Shown here: piece after piece, positions 57,964-62,875 of the stretch
How positions within the stretch are numbered: position 1 is the stretch's first letter
Layout of the letters: each line of letters begins with the position of its first letter
Assembly: GCF_011075055.1 (NCBI RefSeq)
Contig: NC_058154.1
Span: 3,100,001-3,164,000, forward strand
Length of the DNA stretch: 64,000 bases
From: Mangifera indica
Taxonomy: Eukaryota > Streptophyta > Magnoliopsida > Sapindales > Anacardiaceae
Reading direction: 5' to 3'
The notes under the pieces: model-generated
Databases searched by the model: none
Seen by the model: only the letters and a program-made list of their open reading frames with translations
Told to the model about the DNA's origin: nothing
Translations under genes and position numbers: made by a program

Positions 57964-59724
57964 ATGGATTTCTCGGCAAGTTCTTTGGGAAGGAGAGAAT
58001 CCTCGGCTGTTGAACATTTTTTTAAAGTTCAACCTGATGGATGCTTGATGATGCTTTCAAGAATTCCGGACTCTGGAAATGGGTCTAGGCTCCTGAAACC
58101 AATACTCGACAGAAAGTTCAAAGTAGTTGCAGTGACTCCAGACTTGTCCTTTTTGCTCAAGAATACTCCAGCTGAAAGTTGGTTCAATGAAATGATGAGT
58201 GGAAATAAGGATCCTGGTGAGATTCCACTAGCTCAGAATCTTTCCAATCTAACCAGGCTTGCAGTTTTATACAAGTATGGAGGTGTGTACATGGATACAG
58301 ATTTCATAATTCTAAATTCTCTTCCACAACAATACGGACCTTTCAAAATCTCTTATAACACACATAAGGAAAAATGGTCAATCAATGAACTTCTGACCAT
58401 GTGTGTTCAAGAGGAAGGAAGGTTGTTGATTGAAATGAATGAAAGTGCACATATGGTTACACAAGGGAAGAAGACGAAAAACCAAACTAAGTATAAAGGA
58501 AAGGATAAAATATTCAATCAGCCCGAATTTAAGAAGGAATCCAAATGTTTTTTCTGTAAAAAGAAAGGACATGTCAAAAAGGATTGCATTAAGTTTAAAA
58601 CTTGGCTTGAAAAGAAAGGTAATCCAATCTCACTTGTATGTTATGAATCTAATATGGTTGATGTTTGTCATAACACTTGGTGGATTGATTCTGGTTCTAC
58701 AATCCATATTTCAAATACCTTGCAGGGCTTTCTAAACCAAAGGAAGCCGATGACCAGTGAACAATGCATCTATTCAGGAAATAAGATGTGTTCACATGTG
58801 GAAGCGGTCAGAACGTGCAGATTAGTTTTAGATTCTGGTTTTGTTTTGGATTTAGAACGAACCTTTTATATTCCAAGTTTCTCTAGAAACTTAATTTCTG
58901 TTTCAAGACTTGTACCCTTTGGATTTTCCTTTACATTTAATAAAACTGCATTTAGTTTGATTTATAAATCTGCAGTTGTGGGAAATGGTATATTGTCTGA
59001 TGGTTTGTTCCGAATTCATTTACAAAACAATGTTTCATTTAATTTGATGCATGTTCAAGATAATGTTAGTATTAAAAGAAGTGTTATGAATGAAAATTCT
59101 TCTATATTGTGGCATCGGAGATTGGGACATATCTCCATAGAAAGAATTAAAAGGTTAGTGAATGATGGAGTACTAGATACTTTAGATTTTACTGACTTTG
59201 ATACTTGTGTGGATTGTATAAAGGGAAAACAAACCAACAAGTCAAAGAAATGTGCCAAGAGGAGTTCAGACATATTAGAAATCATACATATAGATATTTC
59301 TTGTCCTAATATGGATGCTTATGGTCAAAAATACTTCATCTCATTTATTGATGATTATTCACGATACATGTATCTCTACATGCTCCATAACAAGAATGAA
59401 ACATTATATGCCTTTAAGGTTTTCAAGGCAGAAGTAGAAAAACAATCTGGAAAACAAATTAAAATCGTGAGATCAGATAGAGGTGGAGAATATTATGGTA
59501 AATACACTCATGATGGACAAGCACCTGGTCCATTTGTAAGGTTTCTTGAAGAAAATGGGATTGTTGCCCAATACACTATGTCTGGTTCTCCAGACCAAAA
59601 TGGTGTAGCGAAAAGAAGAAACCGAACTCTATTGGACATGGTGCGGAGTATGCTTAGCAGCTCCAAACTTCCTAAATCACTGTGGATAGAAGCTCTTAAA
59701 ACGACAGTGTATATATTGAACTGA
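57964..59724 (+). CDS. Chimeric frame: glycosyltransferase segment fused to Copia gag-protease-integrase
   Basis: A 586-codon open frame. Residues 1 to about 117 are the glycosyltransferase segment, including DTD at residues 111-113. From about residue 118 the sequence is the C-terminal part of Copia gag (NSLPQQYGPF block) with a CX2CX4HX4C knuckle (C195, C198, H203, C208). The protease motif DSGS follows at residue 242, then the pre-integrase WHRRLGH near 383, CVDC, and the integrase core with HIDISC and RSDRGGEY. The third catalytic acid of integrase is lysine (K550, in NGVAKRRNR). It ends at TGA 59722-59724 where other elements have an Arg-type codon; the frame then continues. Whether the fusion is ever translated is unknown; its own ATG lies inside the dead gene. 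Confidence 0.8.
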   Translation: MDFSASSLGRRESSAVEHFFKVQPDGCLMMLSRIPDSGNGSRLLKPILDRKFKVVAVTPDLSFLLKNTPAESWFNEMMSGNKDPGEIPLAQNLSNLTRLAVLYKYGGVYMDTDFIILNSLPQQYGPFKISYNTHKEKWSINELLTMCVQEEGRLLIEMNESAHMVTQGKKTKNQTKYKGKDKIFNQPEFKKESKCFFCKKKGHVKKDCIKFKTWLEKKGNPISLVCYESNMVDVCHNTWWIDSGSTIHISNTLQGFLNQRKPMTSEQCIYSGNKMCSHVEAVRTCRLVLDSGFVLDLERTFYIPSFSRNLISVSRLVPFGFSFTFNKTAFSLIYKSAVVGNGILSDGLFRIHLQNNVSFNLMHVQDNVSIKRSVMNENSSILWHRRLGHISIERIKRLVNDGVLDTLDFTDFDTCVDCIKGKQTNKSKKCAKRSSDILEIIHIDISCPNMDAYGQKYFISFIDDYSRYMYLYMLHNKNETLYAFKVFKAEVEKQSGKQIKIVRSDRGGEYYGKYTHDGQAPGPFVRFLEENGIVAQYTMSGSPDQNGVAKRRNRTLLDMVRSMLSSSKLPKSLWIEALKTTVYILN

Positions 59725-61899
59725 GTTCCAACAAAGGTTGTTTCTAAAACACCATTTGAGTTATTTAAAGGTTGGAAACCGAGTTTACGACATATACTCG
59801 TTTGGGGATGCCTGTCTGAAGTAAGAGTTTATAATCCACATGAGAAGAAATTAGACCCAAGGACTATAAGTGATTATTTCATTGGATATGCCGAAAAGTC
59901 TAAGGGTTATAGGTTTTATTGTCCATCACATAGCACTAGAATAGTGGAATCTCGAAATGCAAAATTTCTTGAAAATGACTTAATCAGTGGGAGCGATCAA
60001 TCTCAGGATTTAGTTTTTGAGAAAGATCATTCAGATACTCAACCACCCATTTCGAGTAATAGATTGGTTGTTATTTATAACACCCCTCAAGTTCAAATGG
60101 ATGTTGAACAACCAATTAATGAAGTTCCACAAGTTGCTGATAATACTCTAGTAGATCAAATTGTTCAACAACCTTCAGATATTGTTGAATCACCAGTTGT
60201 ACACTCTACTCCACAAGAGGATAGTGTTACAACATTAAGAAAATCAACTAGAATGAAGAAATCAACTATTTATAGTGATTATATAGTGTATTTACAAGAA
60301 ATTGACCATAATTTAGGAGCCGAAGATGATCCTGTTACGTTTTCACAAGCAATAGATTGCAATAAATCTATTTTATGGTACAATGCTATGAAAGATGAGA
60401 TGAAATCTATGAAGAATAATGGAGTCTGGGATCTTGTCAAGTTACCTAATGGGGCAAAGGCTATTGGGTGTAAATGGGTCTATAAAATAAAGAAAGACTC
60501 ATTAGGTAACATCGAGAGATATAAAACAAGACTCGTTGCTAAGGGTTTTACTCAAAAAGAGGGAATCGATTATACAGAGACTTTTTCTCCTGTATCTAAG
60601 AAAGATTCTTTTCGTATTATAATGGCATTAGTAGCACATTTTGACTTGGAACTGCATCAAATGGATGTGAAAACAGCATTCCTCAATGAAGATTTAAAGG
60701 AAGAGGTATATATGAAACAACCTGAAGGATTCTCCTCTAGTGATGGTGAGCATTTGGTGTGCAAGCTTAGGAAGTCCATATATGGATTGAAACAAGCATC
60801 CCGTCAATGGTATTTGAAATTCCATGAGGTTATCTCTTCATTCGGTTTTGAAGAGAATATCATGGATCAATGTATATACCAGAAGGTCAGTGGGAGTAAA
60901 ATTTGTTTCCTTGTTCTATATGTGGATGATATATTACTTGCAACCAATGATAAAAGATTGCTTTATGAGGTGAAACAATTTCTCTCTAAAAACTTTGATA
61001 TGAAAGATATGGGTGAGACGTCTTATGTCATTGGCATTAAGATTCATAGGAACAGACCTCAAGGCAGACTAGGTCTATCTCAAGAAACCTATATCAACAA
61101 AGTTTTAGAGAGATTTTGGATGAAAGATTGTTCACCAAGTATAGCACCAATTGTGAAGGGTGATAAGTTCAATTTGAACCAATGCCCTAAAAATGAACTT
61201 GAAAAGGAACAAATGCAGAACATTCCCTATGCTTCAACTATTGGAAGCCTTATGTATGCTCAGGTTTGCACAAGACTTGACATTGCATTTGCTATTGGGA
61301 TATTAGGAAGATATCAGAGTAACCCAAGTATATACCACTGGAGAGCTGCAAAGAAAGTGATGCGGTACCTTCAAGGGACCAAAGAATACATGTTTATATA
61401 TAAACGGATTGATAATTTAGAGATAGTTGGTTACTCTGATTCGGATTTTGCTGGCTGTGTTGATTTAAGAAAATCAACATCTGGATATATTTTCTTGTTT
61501 GCCGGCGGAGCCATATCTTGGAGGAGTGCTAAGCAGTCATTGATTGCTACATCTACCATGGAGGCTGAGTTTGTTTCTTGTTTTGAGGCTACATCACATG
61601 GTGTATGGTTGAAGAGTTTCATATCTAGGCTTAGGATTGTGGATTCTATTTCTAAGCCGATAAAAATTTATTGTGACAATTCAGCTGCTATTTTCTTAGC
61701 TAAAAATAATAAAAGTAGTAGTCGAAGTAAACATATCGACATTAAGTATTTAGCCATTAAGGAACGTGTAAAAGAAAATAAAGTGGTCATTGAACACGTC
61801 AGCACTGAATTGATGATTGCCGATCCTTTGACAAAAGGCATGCCACCAAAAAGTTTTAAGGATCATGTAGAGCGAATAGGAGTTAGTCTCATGTTGTAA
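59725..61899 (+). CDS. Copia reverse transcriptase-RNase H, continuing after TGA
   Basis: Same frame as the preceding integrase. The integrase C-terminus continues (a PFELFKGWKPS block); the first ATG is at 59944, giving 651 residues to the stop at 61897-61899. Reverse transcriptase blocks are KWVYKIK, RLVAKGFTQ, MDVKTAFLN, SIYGLKQASRQWY and catalytic YVDD at 60919-60930. RNase H motifs follow: YSDSDFAGC, STMEAEF, YCDNSAA, then RSKHIDIKY and DPLTKG. All key residues of both enzymes that I can see are kept. It cannot be made as part of the polyprotein unless the TGA is read through. Confidence 0.85.
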   Translation, partial: VPTKVVSKTPFELFKGWKPSLRHILVWGCLSEVRVYNPHEKKLDPRTISDYFIGYAEKSKGYRFYCPSHSTRIVESRNAKFLENDLISGSDQSQDLVFEKDHSDTQPPISSNRLVVIYNTPQVQMDVEQPINEVPQVADNTLVDQIVQQPSDIVESPVVHSTPQEDSVTTLRKSTRMKKSTIYSDYIVYLQEIDHNLGAEDDPVTFSQAIDCNKSILWYNAMKDEMKSMKNNGVWDLVKLPNGAKAIGCKWVYKIKKDSLGNIERYKTRLVAKGFTQKEGIDYTETFSPVSKKDSFRIIMALVAHFDLELHQMDVKTAFLNEDLKEEVYMKQPEGFSSSDGEHLVCKLRKSIYGLKQASRQWYLKFHEVISSFGFEENIMDQCIYQKVSGSKICFLVLYVDDILLATNDKRLLYEVKQFLSKNFDMKDMGETSYVIGIKIHRNRPQGRLGLSQETYINKVLERFWMKDCSPSIAPIVKGDKFNLNQCPKNELEKEQMQNIPYASTIGSLMYAQVCTRLDIAFAIGILGRYQSNPSIYHWRAAKKVMRYLQGTKEYMFIYKRIDNLEIVGYSDSDFAGCVDLRKSTSGYIFLFAGGAISWRSAKQSLIATSTMEAEFVSCFEATSHGVWLKSFISRLRIVDSISKPIKIYCDNSAAIFLAKNNKSSSRSKHIDIKYLAIKERVKENKVVIEHVSTELMIADPLTKGMPPKSFKDHVERIGVSLML

Positions 61900-62622: not shown

Positions 62623-62875
62623 TTAACTTCACAATCTTGTTGCCGATGGCGTTCTATCCAATTGATTGGAACAGAATAATAAGGTTTTCAAAATGCCAGA
62701 AACCCATGCGAATTCGAAATAGGTGAATGCGAAGCTACATCAACTGAGTGGAGACATTTACGGGAAACACTTGAGTAAAAGGCAAAGTAGAAGAGTTAGA
62801 ATAAAAGAGGGAAGCGTCATGGGAAGATTAATTTCTGATCATTGCATCTTTTGTGAAGACATTTATACTTCTTGA

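What the first reader, a model, noticed from the sequence alone, without database searches (positions are those of the whole stretch)
57964..62875. Glycosyltransferase gene fused in frame to a Copia polyprotein, with the 5' LTR and the middle of the gene lost
The gene is interrupted at the DXD region (about 58310) and resumes exactly after the 3' LTR (62623), but the two flanks are not adjacent in the family: about 100 residues are missing. A Copia insertion followed by a deletion from inside the host gene through the 5' LTR into gag explains both losses. The join falls where both partners could carry an ILNSL-like stretch, so short homology may have guided it. The result is a 586-codon open chimera. 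That it stays open through gag and integrase is notable for a dead locus.
Basis: partly seen in the sequence, partly recalled or inferred. Interest (0 to 1): 0.75.

Follow-up and report, generated by a model that had tools for sequence, protein, structure and literature searches.

The report
Decayed gene fused to truncated retrotransposon
In what appears to be a mango genome, a jumping element landed in a failing sugar-transferase gene and a deletion, probably guided by a 7-8 base match, joined the two; it is a clear example of how plant genomes erode such insertions, not a new gene.

Summary
The join is real and maps to the base. Glycosyltransferase (GT) sequence (PF04488) runs to 58316 and Copia gag sequence begins at 58309; they share 58309-58316, ATTCTAAA, identical in 29 of 29 gag loci read and 7 of 8 bases in both near GT paralogs. 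The 3' LTR is 62191-62622 and the gene resumes at 62623, where the two intact paralogs are continuous. No second LTR match lies in the window. About 2.0-2.2 kb of the element's 5' end and 224 bp of gene (about 75 codons, not 100) are missing. Best account: insertion, then one deletion by microhomology-mediated (illegitimate) recombination across the 5' host-element border, a known route of LTR-element decay. The 586-codon frame (57964-59721) is real but needs no special reason: its ATG is out of the gene's frame, behind a stop and a 1-bp deletion; 16 of 28 well-covered, best-matching family copies are open over the same 471 codons; this copy's private changes fit neutrality (8 N, 3 S, 1 nonsense); 0 of 224 retrieved proteins match both halves. 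Host inferred: Mangifera indica. Ordinary, well resolved, low interest.

The parts
57545..57937 (+). 5' part of the glycosyltransferase relic: native start region to a premature TAA at 57935-57937
   Evidence: ORF list; 80% DNA identity to two intact single-exon paralogs on C1; TAA against CAT in the paralog
57938..58316 (+). GT relic continued to the join, with a 1-bp deletion at about 57973; keeps the DXD motif (DTD)
   Evidence: Pfam Gly_transf_sug E 1.4e-19; alignment to L014
57964..59724 (+). Chimeric open frame of 586 codons: GT fragment, then Copia gag part, gag_pre-integrase, integrase; the stop 59722-59724 is private to this copy among those compared
   Evidence: no stop at that codon in 27 of 27 other loci that cover it (2 of 29 do not reach it)
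58309..58316 (+). Microhomology at the join, ATTCTAAA (7 bp TTCTAAA if the lost gene copy read like its paralogs)
   Evidence: gag: 11 of 11 and 29 of 29; GT paralogs TTTCTAAA, 2 of 2
58309..62190 (+). 5'-truncated Copia internal region (partial gag to the end of pol, then polypurine tract)
   Evidence: Pfam gag_pre-integrs, rve, Pol_BBD, SH3_retrovirus, RVT_2; 29 family loci 94.4-97.4% identical within 58309-59724
62191..62622 (+). 3' LTR, 432 bp, TGTCAG...TAACA; the only LTR left
   Evidence: 41 matches in the own genome, itself included (a lower bound); termini compared with paired-LTR members
62623..62627 (+). TTAAC: inferred right-hand copy of the 5-bp target site duplication (left copy lost)
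   Evidence: 5-bp TSD perfect in 8 of 11 paired-LTR members; TTAAC is continuous in the paralogs
62623..62875 (+). 3' part of the GT relic to its stop (62873-62875), with a 1-bp deletion at about 62676 and a TAG at 62720-62722
   Evidence: 80-81% identity to both near paralogs starting exactly at 62623; lesions from the alignment; positions checked

Best explanation
A Copia element inserted by the ordinary integrase route into the single-exon glycosyltransferase gene, immediately 5' of TTAAC (now 62623). Later one deletion of about 2.3-2.4 kb, between a TTCTAAA/ATTCTAAA stretch in the gene and the same stretch in gag, removed 224 bp of gene, the left target-site copy, the 5' LTR, the leader and the first part of gag (microhomology-mediated end joining or other illegitimate recombination). 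The locus is a pseudogene; the long chimeric frame is inherited from a young, still open gag-pol and is drifting neutrally. Shown: both junctions, the shared bases, the missing pieces, neutral-like private changes. Inferred: the order of events, a single deletion, and the repair pathway.
For: GT homology ends at 58316 in both near paralogs; gag homology begins at 58309 in 39 of 39 non-self matches scored (40 of 163 candidates scored) and in 29 of 29 loci read. A shared run of 7 bp or more occurs at only 283 of 400,000 random joins of the two parents. The 3' boundary is a canonical LTR end followed by gene sequence continuous with the paralogs. Paired-LTR members show 5-bp TSDs (8 of 11 perfect, 1 with 4 of 5, 2 unresolved). 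Private changes match drift. Small patches of microhomology flanking deletions in plant LTR elements are reported in PMC1940013 (passages seen).
Against: The left TSD copy, the 5' LTR and any full-length stage are gone, so the two-step order is not directly seen. 225 shared runs of 7 bp or more exist between the two parent stretches, so this site was one of many possible. No reads, cultivars or allelic copies were available.
Confidence: 0.88

Rival explanations
1. One-ended integration: only the 3' LTR was joined by integrase, and a 5'-truncated cDNA end was healed onto the gene 224 bp upstream by microhomology, so no full-length copy ever stood here.
For: It gives the same final sequence, including one microhomology join.
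Against: [quoted passage not shown] Deletion after insertion is the route they favour.
Confidence: 0.06
2. Assembly artefact: a collapsed or misjoined repeat produced the fusion.
For: The family is abundant (163 gag candidates in the genome, 40 scored) and no reads were seen.
Against: No N in the window; the join sits at a 7-8 bp match, which is short for an assembler to be misled by (inference); both sides are gene fragments in the right order and orientation with a precise LTR end.
Confidence: 0.03
3. The chimera is a functional or domesticated gene making a GT-gag-integrase protein.
For: 586 open codons in frame.
Against: The native frame is broken upstream by a stop and a 1-bp deletion; private changes 8 N, 3 S, 1 nonsense against a neutral expectation of 69/27/4%; the stop at 59722 is itself private among the copies compared; 0 of 224 retrieved proteins match both halves.
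Confidence: 0.02
4. Transduction: the GT fragment was captured into a Copia transcript and moved with it.
For: Chimeric gene-element frames can arise that way (general knowledge, recalled).
Against: GT sequence lies on both sides of the element, in gene order, and the 3' flank resumes the same gene; no second copy of the join appears among 5 GT matches (itself included) and 40 scored gag matches (itself included).
Confidence: 0.01

Closest known systems
Truncated (internal region plus one LTR) LTR-retrotransposon copies attributed to illegitimate recombination, as in the rice survey PMC1940013 (passages seen)
   Same: One LTR lost, a deletion with microhomology at its join, in a recently amplified family
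   Different: Here the deletion also runs into the host gene and happens to keep the reading frame
Ty1/Copia retrotransposon of the kind named 'TNT 1-94' in public protein records
   Same: Integrase before reverse transcriptase; gag relatives carry PF14223; TGT...ACA LTRs, 5-bp TSD and PPT in members
   Different: Lacks the 5' LTR, leader and first part of gag; one premature stop
Plant alpha-1,4-glycosyltransferase family (Gly_transf_sug / Gb3_synth; At4g19900-like in some records; CAZy GT32 is recalled, not from a call)
   Same: DXD-bearing first half, 80% DNA identity to intact paralogs on C1
   Different: Disrupted: two stops, two 1-bp deletions, 224 bp missing, a retrotransposon remnant inside

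Membership tests
Ty1/Copia LTR retrotransposon | Integrase domain encoded upstream of reverse transcriptase | tested here: met
   rve in 57946-59721, RVT_2 in 59725-61896
Ty1/Copia LTR retrotransposon | Two LTRs with TG...CA ends | tested here: not met
   One LTR only, 62191-62622, so this is a truncated copy, not a complete element. The 11 members chosen have two LTRs (ends unresolved in 2)
Ty1/Copia LTR retrotransposon | 5-bp target site duplication | tested here: inconclusive
   Left side deleted here; perfect in 8 of 11 members, 4 of 5 bases in 1, 2 unresolved
Ty1/Copia LTR retrotransposon | Polypurine tract before the 3' LTR and primer-binding site after the 5' LTR | tested here: inconclusive
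   AAGTGGGAGAA before 62191 here; the PBS region is lost here but TGGTATCA follows the 5' LTR in 11 of 11 members
Deletion by illegitimate (microhomology-mediated) recombination | A few shared bases at the join | tested here: met
   7-8 bp, 58309-58316
Deletion by illegitimate (microhomology-mediated) recombination | Intact ancestral allele showing the deleted segment | not testable with these tools
   No other mango assembly was at hand; only paralogs and family members could be compared
Plant alpha-1,4-glycosyltransferase | Gly_transf_sug region with DXD | tested here: met
   PF04488, 71 bits, profile positions 2-84 of 93
Plant alpha-1,4-glycosyltransferase | Intact full-length frame through Gb3_synth | tested here: not met
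   Two stops, two 1-bp deletions and 224 bp missing; Gb3_synth present in L014

The most novel reading that the evidence does not exclude
The join gave rise to a translated glycosyltransferase-gag-integrase protein (through a new start at 57964) that exists, or is polymorphic, among mango cultivars as a very young chimeric gene.
Probability: 0.02. Interest if true: 0.5.

Novelty: new member of a known kind. Interest (0 to 1): 0.2.

Why it matters
It is a base-resolved example of how a plant genome can lose both an LTR-retrotransposon end and part of a host gene, apparently in one step. It also shows why a long open chimeric frame need not be a gene: a short match lying in the same codon phase in both partners, plus a young gag-pol, is enough.

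Tried and rejected
Domesticated chimera: rejected by neutral-like private changes and the upstream lesions. Chimeric protein elsewhere: searched with a 145-aa piece (104 hits, candidates of about 80-254 aa) and with residues 60-200 of the 586-aa frame (candidates of about 322-1025 aa; the 120 best of 454 hits listed). Of these 224 proteins, 0 match both halves at E 1e-3, 53 match the GT half only and 171 the gag half only. Many BLASTP alignments of the joined query did cross the join; when the halves were searched apart no protein matched both. The 334 unlisted hits, and lengths of about 255-321 aa and above 1025 aa, were not examined. One public model (P0293, Tetracentron sinense) carries RVT_2 and a GT; it has a Copia-like piece in front of a GT sequence with other boundaries and is not the same event.

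Was the gene dead before the insertion? Two stops and two 1-bp deletions in 1,025 retained bases is more than the Copia branch length predicts (expected 0.7-1.7 under assumed indel rates of 0.05-0.2 per substitution; P of 4 or more 0.005-0.10), a lean towards earlier decay. But the excess of changes at conserved sites is not significant (19 in the relic only, 13 in the paralog only, p 0.38), and relic against paralog still shows dN/dS 0.38 (5' part, 256 codons). Left open. Age: 12 private differences in 1,416 sites correspond to roughly 0.65-1.2 million years under rates of 1.3e-8 and 7e-9, which are recalled, not looked up; private sites alone only approximate the branch.

Papers: PMC1940013, passages only; PMC13110181, abstract and outline; the rest, search listings only (12 of 42, 12 of 12 and 6 of 6 papers listed). 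No listed title or abstract start names this locus; no other literature search for it was made.

Full report
The host. The window lies in an unnamed 391-Mb assembly (G000:C18:3100001-3164000). The protein of an intact paralog in that assembly is 100% identical to a Mangifera indica record on a contig of 29,456,600 bases, the exact length of C1. The species is therefore taken to be mango; this is an inference from that match.

The 3' side. The LTR is 62191-62622 (432 bp, TGTCAG...TAACA), preceded by the purine tract AAGTGGGAGAA. Right after it, at 62623, sequence matching the glycosyltransferase (GT) resumes; both near paralogs on C1 match from exactly this base (query position 19 of a search starting at 62605). 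In the paralogs the same place reads AGTTTTAACTTCACAATC without a break, so the insertion point lies just 5' of TTAAC. The element's family makes 5-bp target duplications: perfect in 8 of 11 paired-LTR members read at both ends, 4 of 5 bases in one, two unresolved. TTAAC is therefore the likely right-hand copy; the left one is gone.

The 5' side. The GT part matches two near paralogs (C1:763252-764030 and 672157-672935) at 80% identity up to 58316; two more distant matches on C1 (70-72%) end a few bases earlier, at 58311 (details). The gag part matches the Copia family from 58309: in 39 of 39 non-self matches scored (40 of 163 candidates were scored, the window itself among them), in 11 of 11 members fetched by LTR pairs and in 29 of 29 loci read (the best-scoring loci). 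The overlap, 58309-58316, is ATTCTAAA in all 11 and all 29 gag copies and TTTCTAAA in both near paralogs. The three bases before it (58306-58308, ATA) resemble the gene (ATC in both paralogs) and not gag (TTC in 10 of 11 members, GTC in one). The cross-over therefore lies within 7 or 8 shared bases. Random joins between the intact paralog and a 5' piece of one family member share 7 bp or more in 283 of 400,000 draws, so the match is more than chance, although 225 such shared runs exist between the two stretches, so this was one of many possible sites.

What is missing. Against the paralog, 224 nt of gene (about 75 codons) lie between the join and TTAAC, not about 100 residues. Against members, the lost element part from the start of the 5' LTR to the join is about 2.03 kb (C25), 2.12 kb (C2) and 2.18 kb (C11). 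The LTR sequence hits the window only once and the window has no N. One deletion of about 2.3-2.4 kb explains both losses.

The open frame. From ATG 57964 to the stop at 59722-59724 there are 586 codons. The ATG is not the gene's. The native frame starts near 57545 and stops at TAA 57935-57937; a 1-bp deletion at about 57973 lies between it and the downstream GT frame. The 3' relic has another 1-bp deletion (about 62676) and a TAG (62720-62722). Across the join the frame is kept because the shared bases lie in the same codon phase in both parents. On the Copia side, 16 of 28 copies covering at least 95% of 58309-59724 have no stop before codon 471 (the 29th, L061, was left out for low coverage). 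These 29 were the best gag matches to the window, which favours little-decayed copies. In the set chosen by LTR pairs, 10 of 11 had at least one stop in the part read; two of those 11 elements (C25, C2) are also among the 29. So openness is common among close copies but not general. No stop stands at the window's stop codon in 27 of 27 loci that cover it. The window copy has 12 private differences in 1,416 sites: 8 amino-acid changing, 3 silent and 1 nonsense, against a neutral expectation of 69/27/4% computed with an assumed transition weight of 4. There is no sign of selection, and with 12 such changes the chance of gaining no stop is about 0.62.

The gene relic. dS to the paralog is 0.44 and dN/dS 0.38 over 256 codons of the 5' part, so this looks like an old duplicate that spent most of its history under constraint (inference). 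Whether it was already decaying when the element arrived is not settled (see Tried and rejected).

Public proteins. Two searches around the join gave 224 proteins to examine; none matches both halves when these are searched apart. No protein with this join was found in the length ranges and listed hits examined.

Verdict. PMC1940013 (passages) describes the process in rice.

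Noticed in passing
L014 and L015 (C1:761500-765500 and C1:670400-674400): Two intact GT paralogs lie about 91 kb apart on C1, both on the minus strand, each with a 463-aa frame and differing at 4 residues: a recent segmental duplication or an assembly duplicate.
   Followed up: partly
L016-L026, L042-L070: Several family copies share premature stops at the same gag-pol codons (for example 124, 138, 143, 234), suggesting that defective copies were themselves amplified, or recurrent changes at the same sites.
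   Followed up: no
P0293 (Tetracentron sinense, 517 aa): A public gene model has a Copia reverse-transcriptase piece in front of a near-complete member of the same GT family, probably an annotation merge.
   Followed up: partly
window 40942-41490, minus strand: A 182-aa open frame that reads like a piece of another Copia polyprotein around the start of the reverse transcriptase (by eye); no Pfam match at E 1e-3.
   Followed up: partly
window 29703-30314, minus strand: A 203-aa open frame with a starch-binding domain match below the curated cut-off (CBM_20, E 2.2e-4, 21.4 bits against 23.3).
   Followed up: partly
C20:5165009-5165876 (L003, L005): Two LTRs of this family lie in inverted orientation with their 3' ends facing, about 20-30 bp apart.
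   Followed up: no
window 57235-57296 and 63968-63989: A pure TA microsatellite of 62 bp upstream of the GT relic and a run of 22 C near the window's end.
   Followed up: no
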